59,360 nucleotides of DNA, from contig SBBM01000038.1 in assembly GCA_005239725.1 (NCBI GenBank), positions 1 to 59,360 on the forward strand, given 5' to 3'. The notes under the pieces are model-generated. The model had not been told where the DNA came from. It did not search any database and saw only the letters and a program-made list of their open reading frames with translations. Made by a program: the position numbers and the translations under genes. This document shows positions 13,253-42,795 of this stretch, one piece after another (position 1 is the first letter of the stretch; the number at the start of each line of letters is the position of its first letter). The DNA is from Planctomycetales bacterium. GTDB taxonomy: Bacteria > Omnitrophota > Gorgyraeia > Gygaellales > Profunditerraquicolaceae.

Positions 13253-13259
13253 ATAATCC

Positions 13260-26229: not shown

Positions 26230-27164
26230 TATATTTCTTTTTCTTTTGAGACAGCAAAATAGTTGTTCTTTTTGATAAGCGCGCTAAGTTCTGCAAATCT
26301 GGTATTAACCGCGCTTAAAATTAATCCTGTGGCCAGAAACAAAAAGGCGGCAACTCCCAAGATAATCCCGCTGATAAGAAAAACATTCAGCAACCTTGTT
26401 AAAGTATACGCATAAATTATTAATAAAAAAGAACAGGCGCCCAATACAATAAAGATAAAAGTAAAGAAATGGTGCGGCTTATGATCCCGTAAAAGCATCG
26501 CCATGGTTACCATAATACGGTAGCCATCAGAAAAAGAACTTAATTTCGAAAAACTCCCTTGAGGACGGCACCTATACATAATGGGCACTTCTTTAACAAT
26601 ATATCCATGCTCCAGGGTCTGCAAAGCAAGTTCTGTTTCAATCTCAAAACCCATGGTAATCAAGGGTATATTTTTAGCAACATCTTTAGTAAAAACGCGG
26701 TACCCAGAAAGCACATCTTTATATTTCGTCCGGAAAATTAAATTAAGCACGCTGGTGATAAACCAATTGCCAAATTGATGTAGCGGACGGATTGAATTAT
26801 GATTATTCTCTCCCAGGCGATTGCCTACCACCATGTCAGCCTGGTCTTTCAAAAGAGGCTCGATTAACTTATGCACTTCCTCCGCAGGATAAGTGTCATC
26901 GCCATCAACCATAACATAAATATCCGCGTCCAGCTTTTCAAAAATAGACCTCACTACCCATCCTTTACCCTGTTTCTTTTCATGAATGATTTTTGCGCCC
27001 TCGGCAACAGCAATTTCTTGCGTCCTGTCAGTGGAATTATTATCAAAAACTACGATCTCTGCCTGCGGCAGTTCTCTTTGAAAACCATTAATTACCCTCT
27101 TTATGCTCATTTCCTCATTGTAGCAAGGGATAGCCACTACAATTTTCTTATCCTTATAGCTCAT
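26229..27164 (-). CDS. DPM1-like GT2 with C-terminal membrane helices
   Basis: The 311 residues start VVAIPCYNEEMSIKRVI, with DNNSTDRT at 41-48, DGDD at 87-90 and VMVDGDDTYPAEE. Two or more hydrophobic helices near 230-295 end the protein. This layout matches dolichol- or polyprenyl-phosphate mannosyl/glucosyl transferases that build a lipid-phosphate sugar donor. It could supply polyprenyl-phosphate sugar to the GT-C-like protein at 18380, which is an inference. Confidence 0.88.
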   Translation of the reverse strand: MSYKDKKIVVAIPCYNEEMSIKRVINGFQRELPQAEIVVFDNNSTDRTQEIAVAEGAKIIHEKKQGKGWVVRSIFEKLDADIYVMVDGDDTYPAEEVHKLIEPLLKDQADMVVGNRLGENNHNSIRPLHQFGNWFITSVLNLIFRTKYKDVLSGYRVFTKDVAKNIPLITMGFEIETELALQTLEHGYIVKEVPIMYRCRPQGSFSKLSSFSDGYRIMVTMAMLLRDHKPHHFFTFIFIVLGACSFLLIIYAYTLTRLLNVFLISGIILGVAAFLFLATGLILSAVNTRFAELSALIKKNNYFAVSKEKEI

Positions 27165-28651: not shown

Positions 28652-29361
28652 CTGGCGGCAATTTTCTCCATTATCCGCGCATACTTCGATAAATCCGAAA
28701 GTTCCTGCGGAGTCATGCTGCATACATGGTCAGGGCCGACAAGCCCCTTATTAAGCGTGAAGTGTTTTTCTATAATATTTGCGCCCCTTGCTACGGCAAT
28801 TAAGGACATCTCTATTCCGATTGTATGGTCACTAAAACCTTGGTAGGGTAATCCAGCAAAAGAGGCCGGCAATTCAATATCAGAATATTCACACGGATAC
28901 TTAGGCACACAGTACAAATACCTGGCATTTTTATCCTTATAAGGGACACCCTTGCCTTTCCAGAATCCCAGCGAAATAAAAGTCTCTTTACCAGTCTTTA
29001 GTATCTCCCGGCAAAGCTCTTTATCCTGAACAGAACGGCTGGCTATTTTATGCCGTCTGACCCCTAAAGATTCAATCCATCCAAATCTCTCTAAATCAAA
29101 AACCGAAGCCATAAATTCAATCCCTTCTTCGTCAGACCATCTCTTTAAAACTTTTGCCTGCGCAAAATTGAACTGGACGCTTAAGGCGAACTCATAATTC
29201 TTCTTGTCCGGATAAGTACCTTTTGGCCCGAAAATTTTATCCGGGTCATAAAATTGGAATTTGGCGATATCTGCCCCGCAAAGTTTAGCCTGCCTTATAA
29301 GCTCATGCGCCAGGTTAATATTCCCATTGTGATTAATGCCGATTTCCGCAATTATAATCAT
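28648..29361 (-). CDS. NeuB-like nonulosonate synthase lacking the SAF domain
   Basis: This 237-residue TIM-barrel protein has EIGINHNG at 6-13, KFQFY near 34, GFSDHTIG near 175 and IEKHFTLNK with GPDH near 208. These are the NeuB family core that condenses phosphoenolpyruvate with an amino-hexose. Full-length relatives (about 340 residues, as at 33637) add a C-terminal antifreeze-like SAF domain that helps bind substrate across the dimer. This one ends right after the barrel at an ATGA junction, so it looks naturally short and not broken. GPDH resembles NeuB more than PseI. Confidence 0.8.
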   Translation of the reverse strand: MIIIAEIGINHNGNINLAHELIRQAKLCGADIAKFQFYDPDKIFGPKGTYPDKKNYEFALSVQFNFAQAKVLKRWSDEEGIEFMASVFDLERFGWIESLGVRRHKIASRSVQDKELCREILKTGKETFISLGFWKGKGVPYKDKNARYLYCVPKYPCEYSDIELPASFAGLPYQGFSDHTIGIEMSLIAVARGANIIEKHFTLNKGLVGPDHVCSMTPQELSDLSKYARIMEKIAAR

Positions 29362-30026
29362 ATTAAACCTTCCTTCCTCCTGGCTTTATAAATATCTTCA
29401 GCGATTTTAAAATCCTCTTCCGTGTCGATATCGATTAATTCCACCCTATCATTTATTTCAATGAATTCAACCTCTTTCCAATCCCAATACCTGCCGTTTT
29501 TAAAAAAATAGTCCTTATTGAAAAAGTAAAGCGCATGGGCAAATTCATATACAGGCTCAATGGCCTTTGTATTGATTGTCTTCATGGATAAATCAAAATT
29601 TAAGGGCTTGCGATCGGCATTTATAAAAAAGTTTCTCCGCATTACTACCGAAAATGCCGGGTGATATCCGCCATCTCTGCATGCAGAAAGAAAGTTTTTG
29701 ATTGTTTCCACCTTCAAAAATGGCAAGCAGCCATTAACAATAAGCAAATATTCAAAATCTACTGCCTTTAGAAAAGAAAGTATATCTGTTATAGGGCCGT
29801 CTATAGTTATGGATTTCTTATCCCGCTTAATAAACCTTACTCCGGCCTCCCTGCTTTTCTCCTCAAATTCAGGTTCAAATCCGGCAAAAAATGCCTCATC
29901 CTTAAAATATGCCAATTTTTTTAAAACGATGTTCGTCAACGTAGTATCGCCGAAAGGCCTCAGCATCTTATTCGGGCACCTCTGACTCTGTTTCCTGGCA
30001 AAAGAAAATACACCTATTTTATTCAT
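29358..30026 (-). CDS. CMP-nonulosonate cytidylyltransferase (NeuA-like)
   Basis: The 222-residue product has a divergent nucleotide-binding start, FARKQSQRCPNKMLRPFGD, equivalent to the (A)RxGSKxxxxKN loop of NeuA, and a C-terminal EIDTEEDFKIAE pattern (VELIDIDTEED). It should activate a nonulosonic acid with CTP. It overlaps the SAF-less NeuB-like gene by ATGA. As a second copy beside the PseF candidate at 38597, it may serve a different acid such as neuraminic or legionaminic acid. The divergent loop lowers confidence in exact specificity. Confidence 0.8.
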   Translation of the reverse strand: MNKIGVFSFARKQSQRCPNKMLRPFGDTTLTNIVLKKLAYFKDEAFFAGFEPEFEEKSREAGVRFIKRDKKSITIDGPITDILSFLKAVDFEYLLIVNGCLPFLKVETIKNFLSACRDGGYHPAFSVVMRRNFFINADRKPLNFDLSMKTINTKAIEPVYEFAHALYFFNKDYFFKNGRYWDWKEVEFIEINDRVELIDIDTEEDFKIAEDIYKARRKEGLI

Positions 30027-30966
30027 TCAAAAACTCCTTAAAAGTAATATTGCGTATGCCGGGGATAGGCTGCGCAAATTCAAATGGCTCAAAAACATTG
30101 GTAAACTCAATTTTCCCGTAACGCATGATTTTTTCCATATCTTCAAATTCATATGGAGGGCGCATAAATTTCTTTTTATTTTCCTTAAAACACGGGCTGA
30201 AAACGGATATAGCCTTTTTAAAAAACCTGGCAAAGTGCCGGATACTTCTAAAGGTATATAACGAGGAATATTCCATGCTGCCCATCATCGACATATCCAT
30301 CCCGACAAAATATATCTTTTCAAACCCCATATAAGCTTCAAGAGGTAATAAGGCTATAGCCGCTGAATTTAAATGGTTAAAACTATTCAGGACCAAACAA
30401 CCATCTTCCTCAAGAGGCTGATAATATCTTTCCAATGAAAAATCTCCATCTGAATACTTATCGTCATAATAAAAGAGGTCATTTTTAAATCCATCCAATG
30501 CCTTTTTTGATCTTAAATGTGTGATTACCGCAGTACCGGAAATTTTACTAAACAGGTCGAATGGCGAATTCTTTAATTTTATCTCCGGCTTCCAGCGGTA
30601 CCTTTTATGCGGGCCTCGATGGGGAAGATATACTTCAAAATAATCATTAAAGTTGCTTTTGAAATAGCAGTACTCTTCGGCATATTCCGGCTTTAAAAGC
30701 CCGGTCAAATCGATATCGGCAAGAAATGACTGCAAGATAACATGCTGGAAAGAATTCGTCTGGCATTTCTCCGGGAAAAAGGCCAGATAGAAATCGGGCT
30801 TGAGATTAAAATTTAAGAACCGTGTTGTAAGCGATTTTGCCTCTAAAAATACAGTGTAGCGATCTTTATCTACCATACCTAAATTAAAACCATTCTCCAG
30901 GATGGACGGACCGCCCATAATATTCAAAGCCGCCCTACCTTTATATTTATTTTTCAGACGTATCAT
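30019..30966 (-). CDS. Maf/DUF115-like protein, candidate nonulosonate transferase
   Basis: The 315 residues include an N-terminal NIMGGPSILENG (near 15-26) and a central GFEKIYFVGMDMSMMGS (near 217-233). That pattern recalls the GPS loop and the YxxGxD block of the Maf/DUF115 and GT42 sialyltransferase-like fold. Maf proteins transfer pseudaminic or legionaminic acid to flagellin in Campylobacter and Aeromonas. Here the gene overlaps a CMP-nonulosonate cytidylyltransferase gene, which supports a transferase role. The match is by eye and weak; the protein could instead be another GT-A-like enzyme. Confidence 0.45.
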   Translation of the reverse strand: MIRLKNKYKGRAALNIMGGPSILENGFNLGMVDKDRYTVFLEAKSLTTRFLNFNLKPDFYLAFFPEKCQTNSFQHVILQSFLADIDLTGLLKPEYAEEYCYFKSNFNDYFEVYLPHRGPHKRYRWKPEIKLKNSPFDLFSKISGTAVITHLRSKKALDGFKNDLFYYDDKYSDGDFSLERYYQPLEEDGCLVLNSFNHLNSAAIALLPLEAYMGFEKIYFVGMDMSMMGSMEYSSLYTFRSIRHFARFFKKAISVFSPCFKENKKKFMRPPYEFEDMEKIMRYGKIEFTNVFEPFEFAQPIPGIRNITFKEFLNE

Positions 30967-30974
30967 AAATTTTT

Positions 30975-32309
30975 CTATCTAAAATAAAGTTCGCACAACA
31001 TGTTCTTTAGATAATTCAAGTCTTTATTCAATCTTTTTATTTTAATAAAATCGCCGTCCGCAACCACATTAAGCATCCCCCGGTAATACCAATTTAAATA
31101 ATGGGCCATACCGTCTGCGTTATCCTCCCGTTCATAGGTAAAGAAATTCTTGCGCACGCGATGTATGCCATCAAAAAACCACTTATCGTATCCTAACCAT
31201 GATGGCAAGAACCCCCAGATTATTTCAAGCGCGGATCCGGAAAAAGGAAGTTCAAGAACATCGTATATCTTAAATTCTTCAATCTTCCCTGAAAATGATT
31301 CGAGAAACTTCCGGCTTAATAAATGCTGACAGGAGCAGCCAAACCACTCAGGGCCATTTTCCAAATGATACCTCACCCCATTTTCTTCTTTAAAACCTAC
31401 CAGCTCCGTTAATCTGCGCTTTTTGGTATTTACAACAATATACGGTATTACGGGAAAAACCGCCTTACGCCCGGAACGCACACTTTCTGCCGAACGGAAT
31501 TGTTCATATTTTTTTACGGCAAAATCAAATATACGCAAATTATTCCGGAATAATCCGGGAGTGAACAAGCCTTTTTCCCTGGCCCTATATGTCATTTCAT
31601 ATATCTTATTTCTAAGGTTAGTTAAAAACCAATATTCTCTCCCCATGTCCGGGGTATGGTTTTGAGTCTCAATTTGAATGTCTGAACTCCATTTTTCATA
31701 GAGGGCGTCAAAATTTTTATCCCTACGAAAAATCCCGAATGTATCTGCAATCATCCTGTCATGGAATATGTCCATTTCTAAACCAGACGCATTTCTGCGG
31801 TTTAAATTCGTAACCAGTTCCCTGGGAAGACGCTGCTTTTCATGCCCGGAAGAAATAAAGTTTACTCCATTATTAACAGAAAAACTAACCGCAGATTCAA
31901 GAACATGCGAAGAAGTAAAAACACTCCCTTCCTGGATAAAAAATACGCGCTCATAATTTTTCCACAAGCCGGTCTTTATAAATTTATACCAGGCCCCGGA
32001 ATCCAACGCATGGTCATTTTCGAATTCAAGATTAACAACATTATGCCCTTTCACCTTACAGACATCATTAACCCGGGCATCCTCATCGCTCAGCTGCGGA
32101 TTGACGCCGCATCTTATCGCTATCCTGCGGTATTCATCATAACTGCGTTTACCTTCGCAAGAACCATTGCCTTTCTGGTAAATAAAAAACAGGTCCATGT
32201 TTCGATAACCTTGTGCCAGAGTAGAAATTAAGGTAGACATTATCAGCCAAGGCTTATGATGCACGCAGAAAACAAGCGCGAGTTTATTTTTCATATTATT
32301 CATAATCAC
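30975..32309 (-). CDS. Uncharacterised 444-residue protein, possible GT-A transferase
   Basis: I do not recognise this protein. Its start, KLALVFCVHHKPWLIMSTLISTL, resembles a GT2 N-terminal strand and helix. No clear DXD is seen; DDE and ED-type acidic pairs occur. The C-terminal third is rich in Trp, Tyr, Arg and Lys. It is eight bases from the Maf-like gene and ATGA-coupled to the next gene. Its position suggests a glycan transferase or a related modifier, but nothing in the sequence proves it. Confidence 0.55.
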   Translation of the reverse strand: MIMNNMKNKLALVFCVHHKPWLIMSTLISTLAQGYRNMDLFFIYQKGNGSCEGKRSYDEYRRIAIRCGVNPQLSDEDARVNDVCKVKGHNVVNLEFENDHALDSGAWYKFIKTGLWKNYERVFFIQEGSVFTSSHVLESAVSFSVNNGVNFISSGHEKQRLPRELVTNLNRRNASGLEMDIFHDRMIADTFGIFRRDKNFDALYEKWSSDIQIETQNHTPDMGREYWFLTNLRNKIYEMTYRAREKGLFTPGLFRNNLRIFDFAVKKYEQFRSAESVRSGRKAVFPVIPYIVVNTKKRRLTELVGFKEENGVRYHLENGPEWFGCSCQHLLSRKFLESFSGKIEEFKIYDVLELPFSGSALEIIWGFLPSWLGYDKWFFDGIHRVRKNFFTYEREDNADGMAHYLNWYYRGMLNVVADGDFIKIKRLNKDLNYLKNMLCELYFR

Positions 32310-33640
32310 AGCAGCAGATCAAAAATTCGCTTACTGGAATTGTAATCATCGAAGCCAATATAGTCTTTTATATACATTGACCGCTTATCCGCACTAATAG
32401 TAAAATCCTTCAAATCCCTCACTGCCAGTTCCGAGATAACTTGCTCGGCCGTCATACATTGGCTCACTCCTGCATAGTTAAAGACCGAGGGTGATTTATC
32501 CGAAAAGAAAAACTTTCCTTTATCGTCGGGAAAAAATGATGCATCGGGAAGAATATTAAGATGGTAAACATTGGAAAATGCTGCGCTCAAAACCGAAAAA
32601 CTATAATAAGATACTACCAGCACCGCCAAAGAAAGCAGCTCTTTCAATACGGGGGGATTATTATGAGTTTCATCGTCAATCACAAAAAGATCGGAATTTT
32701 TTTTAATATATTCGGACACGGGAAATTTTAATCTGGGCTTAATAACCAGAAAGAGGTCATTCTTACGGGCGAAGTGCCTTATCGCTTTAAAAACTTTATT
32801 CTCATTAATTCCTCTCCGCCACCAGCTAAATGCTGCGGGATCCCTTAAAATATGATAAAGATCCTTGGCATCCAGCAGTCTCTTCTTGAAAAAGGAGTTT
32901 TTCTTACCATGATCCAAGAACCCTTCCTTGGTCGCGAACGTATTTATACCCAAACCGGCAAAAGCCTTTTCCCAGGCCGATTGGGGATTCCAATTTTGAT
33001 AAGGAAAAGGCAAGTATAACAAAATTTTCTTACCCGCAGGAATTCCGTATTTTCGCCGGATCGATTCCGGCTCCCCTAAATCTTTAAAAGAATCAAACTC
33101 CGGCTGCCCGACCACTTTTATCGTAAGATTATCGAATGCATCCCGGTTTCCCTGTCTGGAAAATCTGCCAAGAAAATCTCTCCCCATGTTCACCCATTTA
33201 TCCGTAAAGACAGCAAAGATGACTTTGGAAAGGCGATACGGCTTTTCACTGTTGGCAAACTCAAAAAAATCATCTACCGCGTGCTGAAGTGCAATCCATT
33301 GGAAATTAAATTCGCAAACCGTTTCTCCTTTCCAATACATAAAAGGCTGATGCAGAGAAAACACGACATCGCCCTTATCAAGCCCTTTCAATGCAACCTG
33401 TAGCTCTGCGTTATCGAAAAACATCTTATCACTTTTAAAAATCCTTGTTTTGACTATATTGCCGGAGAATTTAGGCACATATTCAATATACGGAAAAACG
33501 CGCCCCTTTGAAGACTTTTTAGGATGAGCATAATCATGCCAGGACTCAACGTCATACCCTCTCAAAAAAGCCTCTTTTATTAAAGGCGTATAATAACGGT
33601 AGTACATTATTTTATGAACAAGAAAAATTGCACGTTTCAT
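32306..33640 (-). CDS. GT-B-like transferase, CDP-glycerol transferase-like
   Basis: The 444-residue protein looks like a GT-B enzyme: a Rossmann-like N-terminus (KRAIFLVHKIM), an ILLYLPFPYQNW segment near 210, then LVIKPRLKFP and LAVLVVSYYSFSVLSAAF. The last parts resemble the donor-binding region of CDP-glycerol glycerophosphotransferases and capsule polymer transferases (TagF-like). It is ATGA-coupled to both neighbours, which include the pseI gene. It may transfer a nonulosonate or a phospho-polyol. The call is tentative. Confidence 0.5.
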   Translation of the reverse strand: MKRAIFLVHKIMYYRYYTPLIKEAFLRGYDVESWHDYAHPKKSSKGRVFPYIEYVPKFSGNIVKTRIFKSDKMFFDNAELQVALKGLDKGDVVFSLHQPFMYWKGETVCEFNFQWIALQHAVDDFFEFANSEKPYRLSKVIFAVFTDKWVNMGRDFLGRFSRQGNRDAFDNLTIKVVGQPEFDSFKDLGEPESIRRKYGIPAGKKILLYLPFPYQNWNPQSAWEKAFAGLGINTFATKEGFLDHGKKNSFFKKRLLDAKDLYHILRDPAAFSWWRRGINENKVFKAIRHFARKNDLFLVIKPRLKFPVSEYIKKNSDLFVIDDETHNNPPVLKELLSLAVLVVSYYSFSVLSAAFSNVYHLNILPDASFFPDDKGKFFFSDKSPSVFNYAGVSQCMTAEQVISELAVRDLKDFTISADKRSMYIKDYIGFDDYNSSKRIFDLLL

Positions 33641-34668
33641 TCCTTTATGTATTCTAAGCGAATAGGCATGGCTTTTTTAATATCGCAGGCGGCCTTACGC
33701 CCCAATAACCCTTTTAAATATTTCGGGGGCAATCCATGAACCGGACGTATAGAACGAATATTTTCAAGCGTTAACCTCTCGCCTTTTCTGATATCTCTCG
33801 CGCAAAAAAGCGACCGCCGAAAGATTTTATTTTGCCTTTCCCTGCGGCTTAATTTAAAGGTTGCCTCGCCCAGAGAATCCTCAGCAATGCGCACATTCTC
33901 AACAAGCGCCATTAATTCTTGCGGCTCAAGCGAAAAAAAACTGTCCGGGGTCTTAATTTTCCGGGAAAGGGTAAAATGTTTTTCGATTATCCGCGCCCCC
34001 TGGGCAACGGCCGCAACTGCGGCGGCAATGCCCAGGGTATGGTCCGATAATCCTACCGGAAGTTTGAATAATTTTGCCATATACGGTATTGCCCGTAAAT
34101 TCATCGCTTTTGGCTCTGCCGGGTAATCACTCACGCACTTTAACAGCATTATATCTTTTCCCCCGGCTCTTTTTGCTGCGCTTACCGCTTCTCTTATCTC
34201 GTTAAGGCTGGCCATCCCGGTTGAAAGTATTAAGGGTTTATGCGTCTTTGCCGCGTATTCGATCAAGGGTATATCCACCAATTCGAAGGAAGCGATCTTA
34301 TGCAGGGGCACTTCCAGGTCTTCCAGAAAATCCACGGAGGTCCTATCGAAAGCAGTCGAAAAAAATACAATTCCCTGGGAATCCGCGGTTTTTTTCAGCT
34401 TTTTAAACCAGTCCCAGGGCGTATAGGCCTTCTCGTATAATTGATATAAGGTTTGGCTTCCCCATTTGCCGTGCTTTATCCGGAAATATTTATTATCCGC
34501 ATCAAGAGTCAAAGTGTCCGGGGTATAAGTCTGGAATTTTACCGCGTCAACCCCGCATTTTGCGGCCTCCCTGATCATCTGTATCGCGCGTTTTAAACTC
34601 TGCCCGTGGTTAGCCGATATTTCCGCGATGACAAATACCTTATTCCCTAATTTAAATTTGCTCGCCAT
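33637..34668 (-). CDS. pseI: Pseudaminic acid synthase PseI-like
   Basis: The 343-residue enzyme joins a TIM barrel to a C-terminal SAF domain (ARDIRKGERLTLENIR near 290). It has EISANHGQ at 15-22, VKFQTYTPDT near 43, SDHTLG near 208 and IEKHFTL near 230. TPDSFFSLEP replaces the GPDH form of NeuB, and DSxFSL is the PseI hallmark. It condenses phosphoenolpyruvate with 2,4-diacetamido-2,4,6-trideoxy-altrose. It follows pseGH by five bases, completing the Pse set. Confidence 0.88.
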   Translation of the reverse strand: MASKFKLGNKVFVIAEISANHGQSLKRAIQMIREAAKCGVDAVKFQTYTPDTLTLDADNKYFRIKHGKWGSQTLYQLYEKAYTPWDWFKKLKKTADSQGIVFFSTAFDRTSVDFLEDLEVPLHKIASFELVDIPLIEYAAKTHKPLILSTGMASLNEIREAVSAAKRAGGKDIMLLKCVSDYPAEPKAMNLRAIPYMAKLFKLPVGLSDHTLGIAAAVAAVAQGARIIEKHFTLSRKIKTPDSFFSLEPQELMALVENVRIAEDSLGEATFKLSRRERQNKIFRRSLFCARDIRKGERLTLENIRSIRPVHGLPPKYLKGLLGRKAACDIKKAMPIRLEYIKE

Positions 34669-34673
34669 AAGTT

Positions 34674-36089
34674 TTAGCTAAATTTATAGACGTATGATAA
34701 ATAACCATCAACATTATTATTCGTGCCGGCAACATAGCCGGCTTTTGCGAAAGCCTCTTGCGAAACAAAATTATCCCTTTCTATGTTGGCAATGATTTCC
34801 GGAAATTTATTTTTTTTCTCTTCGATGAACTTAGTGGTACCCGAGCGGATTAATTTAGCACCGAGGCCCCTGCCGAAGAAATCCGGATTAAGATTGACAT
34901 TAACTATAACCCTGGATTTACCCTCATCGAATCTGATGACCCCCACTTTATTCTTTCCTTGCTTGGCAATATACATTTTTATGCGAGGGCTATTACTGAC
35001 CCTGGCGAACCATTCCTTGTGTGCCTTAAGGCCTATTTTCGTTTTATTGAAACACCGCCTTCTTACCTCGGGGTGGTTGCGCCATTTCCAAATGTCAAGC
35101 ACGTCTTTTCCGGTAGGCTTCTCAAGAATCAGCCTGTTCTTCGCTTCTTTTAAAAGAAACATTGCAATCCTTGCCGCACCTTTACCGTCTATTGTGCGCT
35201 GCCCGACTATACTCCTTCTATTACGCTGCCGGTAATCGCATAAAGATGCAATGGCGCGGCTTAACCTTACGAATAAATCCTTCTGGCTAAACCATCCAAC
35301 GTATTCAATAAAACCATTCTTCTGCCAGCACTTCAAGTTATATAATTGATTATCCGCAAAACAAATTCCTATGGTCGGAACACCGGTCCTGGCCAACTCA
35401 TAGGTAGTCTGGCCTCCGGAAGAAACGCATAAATCTGCCTGCAACATAAGCCGCCTCATCTTTTCCGCCTTTAAGGGTTTTACCTTTTGACTAACAGTCG
35501 TAAGATTAAAATCATAATCTGACAGGAAACCCGTAATCTTTCTTATGAACTTCTCCCGGTTCATCCCGCCGAAAGTAATCAAAATATTGCTGATTTTTTT
35601 GTTTATTCTTTTTCTTCGAAACCGCAGAAACTCTTTCCGCAAGATTACGTATTCAGCACCGATAAGATATTTTATTCCCTTGTTCTTTTTATATCCCGGG
35701 CCGGTTTTATCGCAAACCGAAGGGTTAATAATAACATCGGCGGGGTAATCCAGCCGGTTGTAGTCATCAATAACAGCGACCAAAGGCCTATTTGCCAAAG
35801 AAGCGATTTTTTTGTAAAACGACTCCGGAACTAAATAAGAATCAACAATCACAATAGAGCTGCCCTTAATCAATTCCATAACTTTGCCGTTTTTTTTCAC
35901 CCAATCCATGGCCGTGAAATCTGCATTATTGCATTTCAGGAAACTTTTGGCATGTCTATCGGCGTTTATAACAAATTTCAGCTCGGAATGAGGCTCCTCC
36001 CTCCGCAATGCATAGGCCAAAGCCAGGCACCTGGACAGATGCCCGAATCCTCTATTCCTGCCTCCTTCGGTCAAAATTAAAATCTTCAT
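34674..36089 (-). CDS. Fused PseG hydrolase and PseH acetyltransferase
   Basis: The 471-residue protein has two enzymes of the Pse route in one chain. Residues 1-318 are PseG-like, with GFGHLSRC at 14-21 (H17 aligns with the catalytic base of Campylobacter PseG) and SSGGQTTYELARTG near 229. Residues about 325-471 form a GNAT acetyltransferase domain with the coenzyme A loop FGRGLGAKLI. PseH N4-acetylates UDP-4-amino-4,6-dideoxy-AltNAc and PseG removes UDP. Fusing the enzymes of consecutive steps could pass the intermediate directly. PseG and PseH are usually separate proteins. Confidence 0.85.
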   Translation of the reverse strand: MKILILTEGGRNRGFGHLSRCLALAYALRREEPHSELKFVINADRHAKSFLKCNNADFTAMDWVKKNGKVMELIKGSSIVIVDSYLVPESFYKKIASLANRPLVAVIDDYNRLDYPADVIINPSVCDKTGPGYKKNKGIKYLIGAEYVILRKEFLRFRRKRINKKISNILITFGGMNREKFIRKITGFLSDYDFNLTTVSQKVKPLKAEKMRRLMLQADLCVSSGGQTTYELARTGVPTIGICFADNQLYNLKCWQKNGFIEYVGWFSQKDLFVRLSRAIASLCDYRQRNRRSIVGQRTIDGKGAARIAMFLLKEAKNRLILEKPTGKDVLDIWKWRNHPEVRRRCFNKTKIGLKAHKEWFARVSNSPRIKMYIAKQGKNKVGVIRFDEGKSRVIVNVNLNPDFFGRGLGAKLIRSGTTKFIEEKKNKFPEIIANIERDNFVSQEAFAKAGYVAGTNNNVDGYLSYVYKFS

Positions 36090-36091
36090 CT

Positions 36092-36844
36092 CTACAGCCT
36101 TACGGGTATGTCGTCTTTATGCATCTCTTCTTTGCATAGTTGAGGCGTAATACTGGTAAAATGAAATATGCTTGCTGCCGCAACTGCCGAAGCTCCGGCC
36201 TTTATTGCCTTACTGCAATCCGCAGGGCTGGCGGCGCCTCCGGCAACAATGAGCGGAATACTCATAAGCGAGGAAACATAATTGATCAATCCCAGGTCAT
36301 AGCCGGACATAAGGCCATCTAGGTCCGCGTTATTAAGCAGTATCTCGCCCACTCCGGAATCTATCAAAAATTTCAAAGCATCCTCCAGGGAGAAATTTAT
36401 CGTCCTCCCTGAATGCGAATAAAGCTCATATTTTTGGACCTGGCCCTTTTTGACATCAATTGAAGCTACGATACATTGACTGCCGAATACCGAAACTGCT
36501 TCTTTGGCAAATGCCGGTTTTTCAAAAAGTACGGAATTTAAAGATACTTTATCTGCACCTGCCTCAAGGGCCCTGGCAATATCCGCACAGGTCTTTATCC
36601 CCCCTCCTACCGTCAGCGGCATAAAACACTCAGAGGCTACGGCGTTAACTGTATGCAGGTCAATCCCCCGGTTCTCTTTGGATGCATCTATATCAAGCAA
36701 GATTAATTCATCAACATTACGCGAATTATAGACCCTGGCTACTACGATGGGATTCCCTAAATTCCGGCGCACGTCAAATTTGATTGTTTTAAGTACGGAA
36801 TACCCATCCAAAAGGACTATCGGTATGACCCGGTGGCGTAACAT
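36092..36844 (-). CDS. HisF-like cyclase subunit of a sugar amidination set
   Basis: The 250-residue TIM barrel resembles imidazole glycerol phosphate synthase subunit HisF. The first catalytic aspartate of HisF (Asp11 in IPCLDV) is replaced by leucine (IPIVLLDG), while the second remains in ASIDVKK near 139. The same change is typical of HisF2 proteins in LPS loci, which pass ammonia to an amidotransferase and do not make histidine. It follows the HisH gene by a TAATG overlap, next to the sugar amidotransferase gene. Confidence 0.85.
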   Translation of the reverse strand: MLRHRVIPIVLLDGYSVLKTIKFDVRRNLGNPIVVARVYNSRNVDELILLDIDASKENRGIDLHTVNAVASECFMPLTVGGGIKTCADIARALEAGADKVSLNSVLFEKPAFAKEAVSVFGSQCIVASIDVKKGQVQKYELYSHSGRTINFSLEDALKFLIDSGVGEILLNNADLDGLMSGYDLGLINYVSSLMSIPLIVAGGAASPADCSKAIKAGASAVAAASIFHFTSITPQLCKEEMHKDDIPVRL

Positions 36845-37455
36845 TAAAATCTGCCCTCACAAAAATTTTTGAGCAATTTCAAACCCGGTTCCTGACTCTT
36901 TTCGGGATGAAACTGCACGCCCAATATATGGCCCTTTTGTACGGCCGCCAGGAAATCTACCCCGTAGTTGCTAAAAGCGGACGTAACCGGTTCATCGGTT
37001 ATCATTTCATAGCTATGCACAAAATAAAAACAGGAGTTATCGTTAATGGAACTAAACACCTTAAAGTCCCCAAAACGCACATCATTCCAACCTATATGGG
37101 GAAGGCGCAGGCCGTGTTGAGAAGCCCGGTGGCGCAAAACTCTTCCCTTAATAAAGCCCAGACCTTCTGTGCCGCCGCCCTCCTCTCCAAAACCGGCAAA
37201 AAGCTGCATGCCGAGGCATATCCCCAGGATGGGAACCTTATCCCCCAGGACCTTATCCTTCAGGAGCTTATCCAGACCTAACGCCTTCAAGCGCGCTGCC
37301 ACTTCAAAGAAATTTCCCACCCCGGGGAAAATCAATTTTTCCGATTTGCTGACATCCCCGGGATTATCGGATACTGCATGGGGTATCTTTAAATACTTCA
37401 ATGCCCGGCTTACGCTGGCGATATTGCCTGTCCCCAAATTAATAACCGTAATCAA
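36844..37455 (-). CDS. HisH-like glutamine amidotransferase subunit
   Basis: The 203-residue class I glutaminase has GVGNF near 45, the nucleophile elbow GICLGMQ with C80, and the FHPEKS motif with H183 and E185. It releases ammonia from glutamine, passed through the paired HisF-like barrel. Its place between HisF and an N-acetyl sugar amidotransferase matches the WbpG-HisH2-HisF2 trio of Pseudomonas, which makes an acetamidino group on a sugar. It overlaps the amidotransferase gene by 17 bases. No other his genes are nearby. Confidence 0.9.
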   Translation of the reverse strand: MITVINLGTGNIASVSRALKYLKIPHAVSDNPGDVSKSEKLIFPGVGNFFEVAARLKALGLDKLLKDKVLGDKVPILGICLGMQLFAGFGEEGGGTEGLGFIKGRVLRHRASQHGLRLPHIGWNDVRFGDFKVFSSINDNSCFYFVHSYEMITDEPVTSAFSNYGVDFLAAVQKGHILGVQFHPEKSQEPGLKLLKNFCEGRF

Positions 37456-38578
37456 TTTTTGTCACATCTCCGTTCTTATCTTTAACCAGTTTTCCGTCTT
37501 TGTCGACAAGAAAAATCTTCTTATTCGTAAACCGGTCCAAAGTCTTAAAGAATTCTTCTTTACTACAGCCTATAAATTTTAGGAAATCCGGGATGTATTT
37601 CCAGGGAATTTTACCCTCATACTCCCGGACCAGCTTTATAGCTTTATCGCGCGTAATCCTGCCGTTTCTTATCTCAATGCAAAGCTGGTCGGTAGCCCTT
37701 CCGTAACCGTATTTTAAAAATTTCATATAATCATGCAACCCGGCCACCCACTTGCAATCCAAGTTTTCAAAATTATAGTACGCACCTTCTACCGGGCCGT
37801 CCGGATTAGGATTCCAGCCCATCTTAATCATCTTATCGCCGTGTTCGTAGGCATCCCATTTAAGATAATAGCCGAGGAACAATCCGGTGACTCCCACATC
37901 TTTCAACTCTTTATCGGAAGGATACTCAAAGGCAAGCAGGTCTTTTTTATCAAAACCTTCGTGGTATAAATCGGATATCCGGTATCCGTACATCTGGAAT
38001 TGCTCCAGCCAGTTCCGGTCCAAATAGTTATTACCCCTTTTAGAGGCCGGACCGCCGTATTCAAGCTGGGAATTTTCGCCCCAGATAAGAAGGGGAATTT
38101 TATATTGCACGGAAACCCTGGGAGGCGCGGTAAATATGCCGATATGCTCTGGCCAGCAGGAATCTCCCAGGTCAAAAAAACCCTTTCTGACCATCTGCCG
38201 GTAAATCTTGCGGTTAGCGCCCACCTGCACAATATCAAAACCCAGGTCGCGCAGGAAAAGAATATTCTTCAGCCCCACTTCGGTCATTTCGCAGGGAATA
38301 AAATTAACGCAGAGAGGATTCATCCCGAATTCATACTTCATTGTGTATGCCTGGTAACAACTGTCTTTACCTCCACTGACCGGGATAATACAATCCCACC
38401 AACTCCCATCTTTATTGCGGTAGCGTTCCAGAATCTCTTCAAATTCTTTGCGCCTCGCCTTCCAGTCTATCTCCGTATGTTTCCTCTCCGCAGAACGGCA
38501 GGCATCACATACCCCTTCGCTATCGAATACCTGCTCCGGGCGCGTATCAGGCATAATGCATTTCTGGCAATACTTCAT
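37439..38578 (-). CDS. N-acetyl sugar amidotransferase (WbpG/PseA-like)
   Basis: The 379-residue protein has paired CxxC motifs (C4, C7, C24, C27) for a metal, then the PP-loop ATP-binding motif PVSGGKDS at 66-73. It activates an acetamido oxygen with ATP and replaces it with ammonia delivered by the HisH/HisF pair, giving an acetamidino group. The PseA homologue in Campylobacter makes Pse5Ac7Am. A good GGAGA ribosome site precedes the ATG. Its presence in a Pse operon supports an amidino-Pse product. Confidence 0.88.
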   Translation of the reverse strand: MKYCQKCIMPDTRPEQVFDSEGVCDACRSAERKHTEIDWKARRKEFEEILERYRNKDGSWWDCIIPVSGGKDSCYQAYTMKYEFGMNPLCVNFIPCEMTEVGLKNILFLRDLGFDIVQVGANRKIYRQMVRKGFFDLGDSCWPEHIGIFTAPPRVSVQYKIPLLIWGENSQLEYGGPASKRGNNYLDRNWLEQFQMYGYRISDLYHEGFDKKDLLAFEYPSDKELKDVGVTGLFLGYYLKWDAYEHGDKMIKMGWNPNPDGPVEGAYYNFENLDCKWVAGLHDYMKFLKYGYGRATDQLCIEIRNGRITRDKAIKLVREYEGKIPWKYIPDFLKFIGCSKEEFFKTLDRFTNKKIFLVDKDGKLVKDKNGDVTKIDYGY

Positions 38579-38596
38579 TGCTTAAGTCTCCATTTC

Positions 38597-39292
38597 TTAT
38601 TTTTTAAAATAGAATTTTACCAGCCTAAAACTCTCTTTATCGTCAACTTCAATGGTATACTCTCTCTCCTGGATTATCCCGGCGATTTTCTTGCCCATAA
38701 AAACATGGGCTCCGGTTTTGCCTTTTGTATTCATAAGCACTGCTGTGCGTATCGCTACAATTGCCCCGTCCAGAAGATACATCGGCTCTACATCCTGCCG
38801 GCGGTATTTAACAGCGCCCTTAAACAGCGGAAGAAGAAACCCTTTTTTATCCCTGCGTTTCATCCACTGCGGTAATTGGGTAACCGGGTATACGGTCACT
38901 GCGCTATCAGCCTTACTGCTTATTAATTTCCGCACAACGTTATCAACCTGCCTTTTTTTGCGGATGGGGATATTTGCCTGTAACCACACAATGATATCGG
39001 CAAAATAACCTTCGGTATTTTTCAGGTATTCCACCGCATGCCTTAACGCCAGCTCTATCGGCGCGGAATCCGTGGCATACTCCGCCGGCCTCTTTATAAC
39101 CTGGACAGAGTATCTTTGCGCCGCGCTAGCTATTTTTTCATCATCAGTTGAAACTACAATTTTATTTACCAGCTTCGACTCCTGCGCCGCCCTAATCGCA
39201 TAATAAATAAGCGGCTTGCCGAAAAGCGGCAGAATATTCTTGTTTTTTAAACCCTTACTTCCTCCCCTTGCCGGTATGATACAGAGTGCCTT
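38597..39292 (-). CDS. pseF: CMP-pseudaminic acid cytidylyltransferase (PseF-like)
   Basis: The 231-residue enzyme begins KALCIIPARGGSKGLKNKN, the CTP-binding loop of NeuA/PseF enzymes, with VVSTDDEKIAS near 48. The frame is open from 39316, but the ATG at 39292 gives the family N-terminus and does not overlap the radical SAM gene. It activates Pse with CTP for a transferase. A NeuA function cannot be ruled out from sequence alone, but the Pse genes on both sides favour PseF. Confidence 0.85.
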   Translation of the reverse strand, partial: KALCIIPARGGSKGLKNKNILPLFGKPLIYYAIRAAQESKLVNKIVVSTDDEKIASAAQRYSVQVIKRPAEYATDSAPIELALRHAVEYLKNTEGYFADIIVWLQANIPIRKKRQVDNVVRKLISSKADSAVTVYPVTQLPQWMKRRDKKGFLLPLFKGAVKYRRQDVEPMYLLDGAIVAIRTAVLMNTKGKTGAHVFMGKKIAGIIQEREYTIEVDDKESFRLVKFYFKK

Positions 39293-39302
39293 CATATTTT
39301 TA

Positions 39303-40676
39303 TTATTCCATCTCAACGTGTTTTATTTTATTCCAAGCCTTCAACTCTTCAATCATGTACGACTGTATCGCATATAATTCCTGGTCGGTAAAATCCGTAA
39401 AATTCACCCTTACTTTTTCTCCCTGTTCCCCTAAACCCAGAATGTATTCCTCTTCATCCTGTATCTTGCCCTGCCCTGAAGCCATACGGTAAAGTTCCGT
39501 GCCCGGATAAGGGGTCAAAAAGAAGATAACCTCGGGTGCCAACTCTAGCTCCTTGCAAAAGTCAATAGTCTCCTGAATGGTCTCCTTTGTTTCTCCTGGA
39601 TAACCGATCATAAACGAACAATCTGCCCAGCCCAGATATTTTCTGGTCAGGCGAATAGCCTTCTTGGCCTGCTCAACGCTAACCTGTTTGTTTATAATAT
39701 CCAGCATCTTCTGGCTTCCGGATTCAATGCCATAGCCGATAAGAACGCACCCGCTATCAGCCATCGTCCTAATCAAATCTTCGGTCATAAGGTTTACCCT
39801 GCCGGCGCAGCCCCAGGTTATTTTTTTACTCACCGTTTTGCTGAATGACTTCAATAAACGGCAAAACTGGTGAACAAATTCTCTATTCATCACAAATTCA
39901 TCATCAATAAAATGAAAATATGTAACCTTATATTTTTCATAAAGGGTCTTGATTTCCTCGAGGATATTTCCGGGGGACCTGTGCCGGTGCCCCATTCCCA
40001 TAAAATCATGGTAGCAATAAATACACCGATACGGACAACCCCTGGTAGCAAACAGGTTAATGGACAGCTGCCAGCTTCCCTGCGCTGAGCCGTCAATCCA
40101 TTTATTCCGGTTCGGCGCGCCGACAGGGTTCTTAAGATATATATCCATAGGGAAAAGGTCCCATGCCGGCAAAGGAATACTATCCAGGTCTTCAATAGGA
40201 GGGCGTTTGCCGGTGATGATTATCTTGCCGTCGGCATCCTTATATTGTATGCCTTTAACTTTAGACAAATCCGCTTTATCCTGTAAAACTGTTATCAATT
40301 CGCGTACAGTCTCTTCTCCTTCGCCGATGCAGACTATATCCGCCTGATTTTTCCCCAAAATGATATGCGGTATAGACGTCCCTACGCTACCGCCTATAAT
40401 AATTTTCTTGTGCGGGTGATATTTCTTTAGCAAAAAAATGAGCCATTTAACATATTTATACGTAGTGACAATGCCGCCTATCCCGACCACATCAAATTCT
40501 GTATTTTTAATTTTTTGTTCCACCTTTGCCCTATCCCACCTGTAAGCATTAATATCCAGGACTTTAACCTCATGTCCATCCCGAAGCAGGACCGAAGATA
40601 TGTAACCCAACCCCGCAGGGAAAACATTCGGCTTGGCCCATTCGCGGATAGGCGGATTTATCAGCAGGATTTTCAT
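39303..40676 (-). CDS. B12-binding radical SAM protein inside the Pse genes
   Basis: The 457-residue protein has the cobalamin-binding pattern (ILLINPPIRE; IIGGSVGTSIPH; IGEGEET) and the iron-sulfur motif CPYRCIYC with cysteines at 214, 218 and 221. FHFIDDEF and GYGIESGS follow. Its gene overlaps pseC by ATGA and precedes the PseF-like gene, so it is expressed with the Pse enzymes. A radical C-methylation or similar change of a Pse precursor is possible, but this is a guess from position. Confidence 0.85.
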   Translation of the reverse strand: MKILLINPPIREWAKPNVFPAGLGYISSVLLRDGHEVKVLDINAYRWDRAKVEQKIKNTEFDVVGIGGIVTTYKYVKWLIFLLKKYHPHKKIIIGGSVGTSIPHIILGKNQADIVCIGEGEETVRELITVLQDKADLSKVKGIQYKDADGKIIITGKRPPIEDLDSIPLPAWDLFPMDIYLKNPVGAPNRNKWIDGSAQGSWQLSINLFATRGCPYRCIYCYHDFMGMGHRHRSPGNILEEIKTLYEKYKVTYFHFIDDEFVMNREFVHQFCRLLKSFSKTVSKKITWGCAGRVNLMTEDLIRTMADSGCVLIGYGIESGSQKMLDIINKQVSVEQAKKAIRLTRKYLGWADCSFMIGYPGETKETIQETIDFCKELELAPEVIFFLTPYPGTELYRMASGQGKIQDEEEYILGLGEQGEKVRVNFTDFTDQELYAIQSYMIEELKAWNKIKHVEME

Positions 40677-41815
40677 ACGGACAATTCCTTTACTTTCGAT
40701 ATTACATATTTTATTTCCGGGACCGTTAACCCGGGGAAAAGCGGAAGCGTAACTGCCAGGCTATAATATTTTTCTGCCAGGGGGCATTTAACGCCTTTAT
40801 AATCCGGAAGATTGCTATAATAGGGGTGCCGGTAAACCGGAATATAATGGACTTGCGCTAGAATACCTGAATTGCGCAAACCTTCATAAACCTTTTTTTG
40901 CATTGCGGAATTCTTTAGCCGCAGGCAATAAATATGCCAGGAAGAATGAACATATTCTTTTTCTACAGGAAGAACCAGCCCGGATACCATTTTTAATGCC
41001 TCGTTGTAGATATCGCGTATTTCTCTACGCCTCTTTATAAAACTATCCAATTTTTTCAGTTGGCTTAGGCCCAATGCGCACTGAAAATCCGTGATGCGGT
41101 AATTAAAACCCAATTCCTGCATTTCGTAATGCCAAAACCCGGCGCCTTTCTTCTTAAACTTATTGAAATCTTTAGTTATTCCGTGCGCCCGCAGGCCTAA
41201 AAGCTTTTCATAAAAACTCTTGCTATTGGTCAATACCGCGCCGCCTTCGCCGGTAGTAATGCTTTTAACCGGATGAAAGCTAAATACGGTCATATCCGAA
41301 TATTTACAGGCACCGATTTTTGAGCCCTTATATTCCGCGCCAAGGGCATGACAGGCATCCTCAATCACCGCCAGGTTATATTTCCGGGCAATACCGCCTA
41401 TCTCCTCCATATCGCAGGGATGTCCGGCAAAATGCACCGGCATCAATGCCCTTGTCTTGCCCGATATTTTCTTTCTTATTTCCAAGGGGTTAATATTTAC
41501 AGTATCTTCCTGTATATCCGAAAACACTGGTTTGCCGCCGCAATATAAAACCGAGTTTGCCGAAGCCGCAAACGTTATAGGCGAAATTATTACCTCATCG
41601 CGATGGCCGATGCCGGCTGAAAGACATGCAATATGTAAAGCTGCAGTTCCGCTGGATACGGCTACGGCATATTTGGCTCCGGTATATTTACAAAGAGCGT
41701 CCTCAAATTCCTTTATCTTCGGCCCCTGGGTAAGCCAATCAGATTTCAAAATCTTTACGACTTCTCTGATATCGGCGGTATCGATAGCCTGCCTGCCGTA
41801 AGGAATAGGCCTCAT
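40673..41815 (-). CDS. pseC: UDP-4-amino-4,6-dideoxy-AltNAc aminotransferase PseC
   Basis: The DegT/DnrJ-type aminotransferase has SSGTAALH at 54-61 and the PLP-binding lysine K184 in FSFHPVKSITTGEGG. The chosen ATG at 41815 (MRPIPYGRQ) matches the usual PseC N-terminus (380 residues) and avoids the 22-base overlap created by the in-frame ATG at 41839. It converts the 4-keto product of PseB to the 4-amino sugar using glutamate. It lies between pseB and a radical SAM gene. Confidence 0.9.
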   Translation of the reverse strand: MRPIPYGRQAIDTADIREVVKILKSDWLTQGPKIKEFEDALCKYTGAKYAVAVSSGTAALHIACLSAGIGHRDEVIISPITFAASANSVLYCGGKPVFSDIQEDTVNINPLEIRKKISGKTRALMPVHFAGHPCDMEEIGGIARKYNLAVIEDACHALGAEYKGSKIGACKYSDMTVFSFHPVKSITTGEGGAVLTNSKSFYEKLLGLRAHGITKDFNKFKKKGAGFWHYEMQELGFNYRITDFQCALGLSQLKKLDSFIKRRREIRDIYNEALKMVSGLVLPVEKEYVHSSWHIYCLRLKNSAMQKKVYEGLRNSGILAQVHYIPVYRHPYYSNLPDYKGVKCPLAEKYYSLAVTLPLFPGLTVPEIKYVISKVKELSV

Positions 41816-41817
41816 CT

Positions 41818-42795
41818 TTATTCCTTTATTATTGCACACAGCTCTCTACCGGAAAGCCAATGTGAATTAGAATCGCTTGTGTACCTAAAACCGTCAGGGA
41901 GCTTCTTTCCTGACTTATGATTCCCTCGGCACCACCAGGAATGCTCGGGGGTAATGATAAAATTTTTTGCGAACTCCACGGCATGCCTGGATTCATCTTC
42001 CGTGAGCAGGCATTCATGGATCTTTTCTCCCGGCCTGATGCCCGTATATTTAATTTTGCAACCGGGGGCAAGCGCATCCGCCAAATCCACGATTTTTGTG
42101 CTCGGGCATTTCGGCACGAATATTTCTCCGCCGTGCATTTCCTCAATACACCTGATGACGAATTCAACGCCTTGCTTTAAGGTAAGCCAAAAACGGGTCA
42201 TTCTCTTATCCGTAACCGTAACTGTCCCGGTTGAACTCTGCTTCTTAAACAACGGTATTACGCTACCCCTGCTGCCGACAACATTACCGTACCTTACGCA
42301 GGACATCTTGGTTTTCCGCTTGGGGCCGACATACGAATTGGCGGCAATAAATAATTTTTCCATGCACATTTTGGTTGCCCCGTATAAATTTACCGGATTA
42401 ACCGCCTTATCCGTACTGATAGCCATAACCTTGGCTACATTATGGTCGATAGCGGCATTAATGACATTTTGTGCCCCCAGGATATTGGTTTTGATCGCTT
42501 CAAACGGATTGTACTCGCAAGAGGGCACCTGTTTCAGGGCGGCGGCATGGACCACGATGTCGACACCATCCATAGCCCGCTCAACCCTTTCTTTATCCCT
42601 GACGTCTCCGATAAAAAATCTTAAGTACCGGTTACCATCAAACTTCTTATCCATCTCATACTGTTTCAACTCATCTCGGCTAAAAATCCTTATAGCTTTT
42701 GGCTTATATTTAGCAAGCATGATCTCGACGAATTTGTGCCCGAACGAGCCTGTGCCACCGGTGAGAAGTATAGTCTTATCTTTCCAGTAATCCAC
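41818..42795 (-). CDS. pseB: UDP-N-acetylglucosamine 4,6-dehydratase (inverting) PseB
   Basis: The 325-residue SDR enzyme has TGGTGSFG at 12-19, STDKAVNP near 127-134 and the catalytic Y138-K142 in NLYGATK. These residues match PseB, including the D129-K130 pair that gives its C5 inversion. It makes UDP-2-acetamido-2,6-dideoxy-arabino-hexos-4-ulose, the first step of pseudaminic acid synthesis. It is the first biosynthetic gene after the regulator and methyltransferase genes. Confidence 0.92.
   Translation of the reverse strand: MDYWKDKTILLTGGTGSFGHKFVEIMLAKYKPKAIRIFSRDELKQYEMDKKFDGNRYLRFFIGDVRDKERVERAMDGVDIVVHAAALKQVPSCEYNPFEAIKTNILGAQNVINAAIDHNVAKVMAISTDKAVNPVNLYGATKMCMEKLFIAANSYVGPKRKTKMSCVRYGNVVGSRGSVIPLFKKQSSTGTVTVTDKRMTRFWLTLKQGVEFVIRCIEEMHGGEIFVPKCPSTKIVDLADALAPGCKIKYTGIRPGEKIHECLLTEDESRHAVEFAKNFIITPEHSWWCRGNHKSGKKLPDGFRYTSDSNSHWLSGRELCAIIKE

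What the first reader, a model, noticed from the sequence alone, without database searches (positions are those of the whole stretch)
33637..42795. Pseudaminic acid operon with an amidination trio
PseB, PseC, PseF-like, a PseG-PseH fusion and PseI lie together, with WbpG/PseA-like amidotransferase, HisH-like and HisF-like genes between them. This predicts an acetamidino-pseudaminic acid activated by CMP. Amidinated Pse is known in Campylobacter with PseA; pairing the complete Pse set with the three-gene HisH/HisF amidination system is an uncommon combination.
Basis: partly seen in the sequence, partly recalled or inferred. Interest (0 to 1): 0.7.

Follow-up and report, generated by a model that had tools for sequence, protein, structure and literature searches.

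The report
Pseudaminic acid operon with radical-SAM enzyme
A bacterial gene cluster encodes relatives of all the enzymes for the sialic-acid-like sugar pseudaminic acid and of those for a known nitrogen-adding step, and also an apparently unstudied vitamin-B12-type radical enzyme whose gene sits beside the same sugar genes in other bacterial phyla; that enzyme would likely give the sugar a further, so far undescribed change, perhaps an extra methyl group on carbon.

Summary
PseB, PseC, a PseF-like enzyme, a PseA-type amidotransferase, HisH, HisF, a PseG-PseH fusion and PseI form one tight minus-strand operon in an Omnitrophota genome with a separate histidine set. CMP-activated acetamidino-Pse is a fair prediction. 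The stated novelty is not supported: Campylobacter pseH, hisF, hisH and pseA carry consecutive locus tags.

In 21 of 25 loci it or its relative lies directly after PseC, directly before PseF, or directly before a Gfo/Idh dehydrogenase; 24 of 25 have Pse genes nearby. The loci span several phyla. A control B12 radical-SAM family has no PseB, PseF, PseG, PseH or PseI within 1.5 kb in 19 loci; two have a PseC-like gene. The amidination trio is in only 5 of 25. Searches of open-licence papers found none linking such an enzyme to nonulosonic acids. Most likely it modifies the sugar at carbon, probably by C-methylation; the reaction is inferred, not shown.

The parts
41818..42795 (-). PseB, UDP-GlcNAc 4,6-dehydratase (inverting)
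   Evidence: TIGR03589 496.1 bits, cut-off 407.75
40673..41839 (-). PseC aminotransferase
   Evidence: TIGR03588 499.1 bits, cut-off 423.5
39303..40676 (-). B12-binding/radical-SAM enzyme, conserved in Pse operons; predicted sugar-modifying enzyme
   Evidence: PF02310 and PF04055; CPYRCIYC motif; AF2 model pLDDT 92.5 and fold matches; Pse genes in the stretch in 24 of 25 loci
38597..39316 (-). PseF-like CMP-sugar synthetase (homologues start near the ATG at 39295)
   Evidence: TIGR03584 112.5 bits, cut-off 205.7; closest solved structures are CMP-NeuAc synthetases
37439..38578 (-). WbpG/PseA-type N-acetyl sugar amidotransferase
   Evidence: TIGR03573 374.8 bits, cut-off 203.2; SGGKDS and two CxxC; solved relative 8wex
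36844..37455 (-). HisH-like glutaminase of the amidination trio
   Evidence: TIGR01855 206.9 bits, cut-off 105.4; GICLG and FHPEKS; second HisH elsewhere in the genome
36092..36844 (-). HisF2/WbuZ-like subunit of the amidination trio
   Evidence: TIGR03572 257.0, NF038364 243.6, HisF 207.1 bits, all below cut-off; Leu where the genome's own HisF has its first Asp, read by eye; canonical HisF elsewhere
34674..36089 (-). PseG-PseH fusion (UDP-sugar hydrolase + GNAT acetyltransferase)
   Evidence: TIGR03590 124.9 and TIGR03585 44.7 bits, both below cut-off; the same fusion in 5 of 25 loci, this one included
33637..34668 (-). PseI synthase (NeuB + SAF domains)
   Evidence: TIGR03586 463.2 bits, cut-off 340.25; the only one of 3 matches over cut-off in the genome
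42811..43719 (-). class I methyltransferase just upstream of PseB; possibly part of the unit
   Evidence: PF08242 50.9 bits
43673..44014 (-). MarR-type EPS-associated regulator upstream
   Evidence: TIGR04176 103.3 bits, cut-off 88; relatives near the Pse genes in L013, L021, L031, L036
30019..30966 (-). stand-alone Maf/GT42-like protein, candidate CMP-nonulosonate transferase

Best explanation
This nine-gene operon encodes relatives of all six pseudaminic-acid enzymes plus the amidotransferase-HisH-HisF trio, and it is predicted to make CMP-activated, acetamidino-substituted Pse on which the B12-type radical-SAM enzyme encoded between PseC and PseF would install one more change at carbon, most likely a C-methyl group. 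Inferred route: PseB and PseC give UDP-4-amino-4,6-dideoxy-L-AltNAc, the PseH domain acetylates it, the PseG domain removes UDP, PseI condenses with phosphoenolpyruvate, and the PseF-like enzyme adds CMP. HisH would release ammonia from glutamine and HisF2 would pass it to the amidotransferase, which turns one acetamido group into acetamidino. The radical-SAM enzyme would act before CMP transfer, on an intermediate shared by two kinds of operon. The finished sugar likely goes to an envelope glycan. Shown: gene content, order, family, predicted fold and conserved context. Inferred: every reaction, the order of steps and the product. My separate odds: amidinated Pse-type product 0.75; radical-SAM enzyme acts on this pathway 0.8; its reaction is methylation 0.5.
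Confidence: 0.45

Rival explanations
1. The operon is an ordinary Campylobacter-type Pse5Ac7Am cluster. The radical-SAM gene is a passenger that works on another part of the glycan or lipid, as the several other B12 radical-SAM genes of this glycan region presumably do.
For: The window has at least four other radical-SAM genes near glycosyltransferases, three of them with B12 domains over cut-off; the product class needs no radical chemistry; of 86 genomes (of 384) with a PseI-family match at E <= 1e-90, 60 of the 384 being over the PseI cut-off, only 7 carry this radical-SAM gene at E <= 1e-100, though the longer form was not searched for in the phylum and two more such genomes surfaced (G379, G113).
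Against: Its place beside PseC, PseF or the Gfo/Idh dehydrogenase is kept in 21 of 25 loci across phyla, often with coding overlap, and the control family does not show this.
Confidence: 0.2
2. The radical-SAM enzyme works like DesII or AprD4: it abstracts hydrogen next to the 4-amino group of the PseC product, causing deamination, dehydrogenation or epimerisation, so that the final sugar is not a Pse backbone.
For: PseC is directly upstream in 12 of 25 loci, as DesI precedes DesII in the desosamine pathway (order recalled); DesII acts on a TDP-4-amino-4,6-dideoxy sugar (PMC11434129, passages); AprD4 is the best solved match by sequence and by Z; a Gfo/Idh dehydrogenase and a class III aminotransferase follow in one operon type; 8 of 16 synthases fit NeuB better than PseI.
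Against: In the window a PseH domain, a PseI over its cut-off and the amidination trio are all present, which suits a retained 7-nitrogen; Pse intermediates have no vicinal diol for AprD4 chemistry (from recalled structures).
Confidence: 0.2
3. The amidination trio serves a different sugar of the same cluster, for example a 2,3-diamino hexuronate as in Pseudomonas, and only shares the operon with Pse genes.
For: The model WbuX is a subfamily of N-acetyl sugar amidotransferases, not tied to one sugar (name and type); a UDP-glucose dehydrogenase relative and a second nonulosonate gene pair lie in the window.
Against: The trio is embedded between PseF and PseG-PseH, and in other loci it is again inside or next to the Pse genes (L021, L031, L040; L042 on the opposite strand). 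Whether the window holds the other genes for a diamino hexuronate was not tested.
Confidence: 0.1

Closest known systems
Campylobacter jejuni/coli Pse5Ac7Am locus (pseH-hisF-hisH-pseA, Cj1313-Cj1316c)
   Same: Pse genes plus a PseA-type amidotransferase with HisH and HisF genes, consecutive locus tags (PMC12102941, passages).
   Different: Here a B12 radical-SAM gene sits between PseC and PseF, PseG and PseH are fused, and no flagellin was found in the 79.9% complete genome. That Campylobacter lacks the radical-SAM gene is recalled, not searched.
Pseudomonas WbpG-HisH2-HisF2 amidination system
   Same: Amidotransferase, HisH and HisF2-type families (NCBIfam WbuX, HisH, WbuZ and AglZ/HisF2).
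   Different: Genetic setting is Pse, not a diamino-hexuronate (the Pseudomonas sugar is recalled; named also in a passage of PMC11676643).
B12-type radical-SAM enzymes AprD4, MgmA, OxsB, CysS, TsrM
   Different: 18-23% identity; Thr71 at the position aligned with the CysS Trp; gene tied to Pse genes in 24 of 25 loci.
Vibrio sp. B9-25K2 Pse-type cluster with SpsF-like cytidylyltransferase
   Same: PseB, PseC, PseG with a cytidylyltransferase other than PseF, as in the second operon type seen here (PMC7371886, passages).
   Different: The passages seen mention no radical-SAM gene; it has an aldo-keto reductase fused to the cytidylyltransferase.

Membership tests
Pseudaminic acid (PseB-C-H-G-I-F) pathway | PseB, PseC and PseI equivalogs over curated cut-off | tested here: met
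   496.1/407.75, 499.1/423.5, 463.2/340.25 bits
Pseudaminic acid (PseB-C-H-G-I-F) pathway | PseG, PseH and PseF over curated cut-off | tested here: inconclusive
   124.9/153.55, 44.7/93.1 and 112.5/205.7 bits: homologous and in place, but below cut-off; the PseF of L013 and of nine other radical-SAM loci, and of the radical-SAM-less G136, also fall below it
Pseudaminic acid (PseB-C-H-G-I-F) pathway | CMP-Pse is the product | not testable with these tools
   needs LC-MS/NMR
WbpG-HisH2-HisF2 amidination system | N-acetyl sugar amidotransferase with PP-loop | tested here: met
   TIGR03573 374.8/203.2 bits; SGGKDS at 68
WbpG-HisH2-HisF2 amidination system | HisH glutaminase with intact Cys and His-Glu | tested here: met
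   206.9/105.4 bits; GICLG, FHPEKS; motif roles recalled
WbpG-HisH2-HisF2 amidination system | HisF2/WbuZ equivalog over cut-off | tested here: inconclusive
   WbuZ 257.0/299.7, AglZ/HisF2 243.6/310, HisF 207.1/294.55 bits: nearest to HisF2-type families, over none
WbpG-HisH2-HisF2 amidination system | genes are extra copies beside a histidine-pathway set | tested here: met
   HisF 380.4/294.55 bits and HisH 235.5/105.4 bits on contig C1
Cobalamin-binding radical-SAM enzymes (N-terminal domain class) | B12-binding and radical-SAM domains, CxxxCxxC | tested here: met
   PF02310 61.5/32.1, PF04055 89.0/29.5 bits; CPYRCIYC at 214
Cobalamin-binding radical-SAM enzymes (N-terminal domain class) | fold of solved members | tested here: met
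Cobalamin-binding radical-SAM enzymes (N-terminal domain class) | cobalamin is bound and methyl is transferred | not testable with these tools
   needs purified protein
AprD4 diol dehydratases (NF033070) | equivalog cut-off | tested here: not met
   96.2 of 500 bits
BchE and HpnJ equivalogs | equivalog cut-off | tested here: not met
   192.0 of 481.35 and 173.9 of 577.6 bits
TokK/CysS-type methylases | Trp in the loop after strand 3, under cobalt | tested here: inconclusive
   Thr71 aligns with the CysS Trp, read by eye from one phmmer alignment; T 50, S 3 of 53; position from PMC13331322 section 3
Maf/GT42 nonulosonate transferases (30019-30966) | fold | tested here: inconclusive

The most novel reading that the evidence does not exclude
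A B12-dependent radical-SAM enzyme is a built-in step of a widespread branch of nonulosonic acid biosynthesis. It C-methylates a Pse-pathway intermediate and so makes carbon-branched sialic-acid-like sugars, a class with no member known to me, in uncultured bacteria of several phyla and in at least one archaeal bin.
Probability: 0.3. Interest if true: 0.8.

Novelty: new variant of a known kind. Interest (0 to 1): 0.6.

Why it matters
All the steps known to me in nonulosonic acid biosynthesis are dehydratase, aminotransferase, acyltransferase, hydrolase, aldol-type, amidotransferase and ordinary methyltransferase reactions. A radical-SAM step would add unactivated-carbon chemistry to bacterial sialic-acid-like sugars, would predict sugar masses that a search list of known nonulosonic acids lacks, and can be tested by one in vitro reconstitution with genes that are all in this operon. 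It also gives a function-bearing context to a large radical-SAM family (1260 proteins at E <= 1e-60 among the 7995 candidates scored) whose listed members are unnamed or called radical SAM protein, YgiQ or Mg-protoporphyrin cyclase.

Tried and rejected
Trio as the novelty: rejected, because the same gene set is known from Campylobacter and it is present in only 5 of 25 related loci. HisH/HisF as misplaced histidine genes: rejected, because the genome has a second set over cut-off. Chance adjacency in a radical-SAM-rich glycan region: tested with a control family and not supported; the control family is a looser set (35-39% identity) than the orthologues, and its p-value ignores kinship. Co-occurrence of the radical-SAM gene with PseI in the phylum: 7 of 9 genomes against 86 of 384, hypergeometric p 5.6e-4, kinship also ignored. 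AprD4-type diol dehydration: kept only inside a rival, since Pse intermediates lack a vicinal diol (recalled structures). A special PseF clade that marks the radical-SAM product: not clean, since the radical-SAM-less PseF of G136 scores alike (119.5 bits) and sits among the best matches. The tree is weakly resolved (5 of 22 inner branches well supported, 12 open), and the two operon types are no more clustered on it than shuffled labels. Cultured hosts: the plasmid collection gave one 30% match, and its annotated neighbours are not Pse genes. The plasmid matches to the amidotransferase were all under 60% identity and not followed up. Flagellar destination: no flagellin found, weak evidence at 79.9% completeness. 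Foldseek alone found no relative of the 30019-30966 protein at E <= 0.001. Promoter-like sites 50 against 39.7 (sd 6.4) in shuffles, terminator-like 21 against 20.2: of little use. No solved structure matched PseG-PseH by sequence. Papers: 'pseudaminic acid' + 'radical SAM' gave 5 papers, seen as a listing only, with titles on other subjects; 'nonulosonic acid' + 'radical SAM' 0; 'nonulosonic acid' + 'C-methyl' 0; (three of four terms on Pse, cobalamin, methyltransferase) held 22 papers, 20 listed, none with a relevant title; one search held 577, and none of the 15 listed has 'B12-dependent radical SAM', so it says little. The library holds only open-licence PMC papers.
Full report
Setting. 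The window is contig C57 of a 1.46-Mb, 79.9% complete genome. Four of its relatives of the 'same class' (G073, G175, G185, G221) coincide in coordinates with records titled Candidatus Omnitrophota (L028, L031, L032, L029), so the host belongs to that phylum.

On the minus strand from 42795 to 33637 lie PseB, PseC, a B12-binding radical-SAM protein, a PseF-like cytidylyltransferase, an N-acetyl sugar amidotransferase (WbpG/PseA type), HisH, HisF, a PseG-PseH fusion and PseI. Neighbours overlap or lie at most 18 bases apart. PseB, PseC, PseI, the amidotransferase and HisH pass curated cut-offs; PseF, PseG, PseH and HisF2 do not, though each has that family as its best match. For PseF the listed TTG start overlaps the radical-SAM gene by 14 bases; homologues begin near the ATG at 39295, seven bases after it.

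The trio is dedicated. The genome has a second HisF (380.4 bits) and HisH (235.5 bits), both over cut-off and about 1.3 kb apart on contig C1 with a weaker HisF-type match, probably HisA, between them. Read by eye from the sequences printed, the operon HisF lines up with that HisF without gaps at the N-terminus, has Leu where it has its first Asp, and keeps the second; the catalytic roles of these Asp residues are recalled. This suits an ammonia-channel partner and not a histidine enzyme.

The trio with Pse is not new. PMC12102941 (passages) lists PseH Cj1313, HisF Cj1314c, HisH Cj1315c and PseA Cj1316c; its authors read hisH/hisF as histidine genes, and their role in amidination is recalled by me. 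PMC3958885 and PMC13130089 (passages) describe acetamidino-Pse in Campylobacter, and PMC13317340 (passages) reports Pse5Ac7Am gene sets in four Clostridium species. For Tannerella, amidinated Pse is tied to a different candidate enzyme (PMC6120980, passages). The PseG-PseH fusion also recurs: 5 of 25 loci, the window included.

The unusual gene is the radical-SAM ORF. In 384 genomes of the phylum, 9 match at E <= 1e-100: the window's own, five at 66-71% identity in other families of the class, and three at 44-46%. In all five close relatives it lies beside PseC and/or PseF. A scan of one genome per species (GTDB 220) found 23 loci; its two seed peptides limit it to relatives that keep them but do not select for context. 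With the window and L013 these make 25 loci. PseC is directly upstream in 12, PseF directly downstream in 11, a Gfo/Idh/MocA dehydrogenase directly downstream in 9; at least one of these holds in 21. The other four are L034 (no Pse gene), L041 and L042 (a cytidylyltransferase follows, Pse genes nearby) and L043 (contig end). Labels rest on BLAST against the window's proteins and L030's cassette at E <= 1e-8, so a weak PseC label can be a general sugar aminotransferase. The named records are titled Omnitrophota, Deltaproteobacteria, Vogelbacteria, Margulisiibacteriota, Actinomycetota, Nitrospirae or Thermodesulfovibrionales, Brocadiaceae, Planctomycetota, Saganbacteria, Acidobacteria, Chloroflexi or Anaerolineales, a Pacearchaeota archaeon and three plain 'bacterium'; all 23 are metagenome bins, so single records may be misbinned.

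Control. Another B12 radical-SAM protein of the same window (16882-18399; both domains over cut-off) was searched in 384 genomes of the phylum. None of its 19 loci, the window's own included, has PseB, PseF, PseG, PseH or PseI within 1.5 kb; two have a PseC-like aminotransferase (42% and 28%). All six close orthologues of the Pse-linked gene, the window's own included, have PseC and/or PseF there; of the three 44-46% relatives one has PseI. Seen from PseF: of the eight best PseF matches in the phylum, the window's included, seven are directly preceded by a radical-SAM gene of this kind (five of the short form, two at 36-37% identity, like the longer form of L037-L042); G136 has PseC there instead. 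Thirty PseF loci were fetched from a longer list. In the 22 others none has one directly upstream, though L092 shows only about 550 bases there; L091, L105 and L109 have a 26-33% match downstream.

Two operon types. Type I runs PseC, radical SAM, PseF, then PseG, sometimes fused to PseH, and PseI. Type II runs PseC, radical SAM, Gfo/Idh dehydrogenase, a CTP_transf_3 cytidylyltransferase, class III aminotransferase; single loci vary. I call the cytidylyltransferase SpsF-like by resemblance to cases in PMC7371886 and PMC7439481 (passages); no family model names it so. On a weakly resolved tree the two types intermix, with seven label changes, at least three forced by well-supported branches. The PseC-radical-SAM pair is therefore the steadier unit and the downstream cassette is exchanged, which points to a substrate before CMP transfer. 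All 16 synthases of the 25 loci were scored: the window, L021, L026, L028, L029, L031, L037 and L042 fit PseI best and pass its cut-off; L013, L023, L025, L030, L035, L036 and both of L041 fit NeuB better, of which L025 passes both cut-offs and the others neither. The enzyme may thus serve more than one backbone.

Mechanism. Of the four full-length structures that PMC13331322 compares, three are methyltransferases, and methylation as the commonest reaction of the class is general knowledge. The intermediates offer no vicinal diol for AprD4-type chemistry (recalled structures). I therefore commit to C-methylation at about even odds given that the enzyme acts here. The chief chemical rival is DesII-like removal of the 4-amino group from the PseC product (PMC11434129, passages).

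Verdict.

Noticed in passing
window 28648-30026: Second nonulosonate pair: a 237-residue NeuB without the C-terminal SAF domain (169.9 bits to the NeuB model, cut-off 399.65) and a divergent cytidylyltransferase, next to the Maf/GT42-like protein.
   Followed up: partly
L041:10845-16743: Anaerolineales locus carrying relatives of the window's second cytidylyltransferase (48%), of the ORF at 30975-32309 (41%) and of the Maf-like protein (43%) soon after a longer-form radical-SAM gene.
   Followed up: partly
window 30975-32309 and 32306-33640: Two proteins of 444 residues without a Pfam match (E <= 0.05 and 0.001); the second has a very weak BFO_1060 glycosyltransferase hit (18.6 bits). Possible novel glycosyltransferases.
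   Followed up: no
L032:4665-6524: Open frame of 619 residues that appears to fuse the cytidylyltransferase and class III aminotransferase of the type II operon.
   Followed up: no
L021:8357-9004: TIGR03587 'pseudaminic acid biosynthesis-associated methylase' (193 bits, cut-off 112.05) beside the amidination genes, with relatives in L028 and L040 (not scored); possibly N-methylates the amidino group.
   Followed up: partly
window 11756-13273, 16882-18399, 20527-21723, 23882-25315, 27161-28723: Five more radical-SAM proteins in the same glycan region, three with a B12-binding domain and one with SPASM; this density is itself unexplained.
   Followed up: partly
L037-L042: A longer (about 560-600 residue) form of the same radical-SAM family, 36-42% identical, also in Pse-type loci; 504 proteins at E <= 1e-80 among the 7995 candidates scored.
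   Followed up: partly
L021:16654-19179: A second HisH, HisF and amidotransferase set in the same locus, 32-45% identical to the window's.
   Followed up: no
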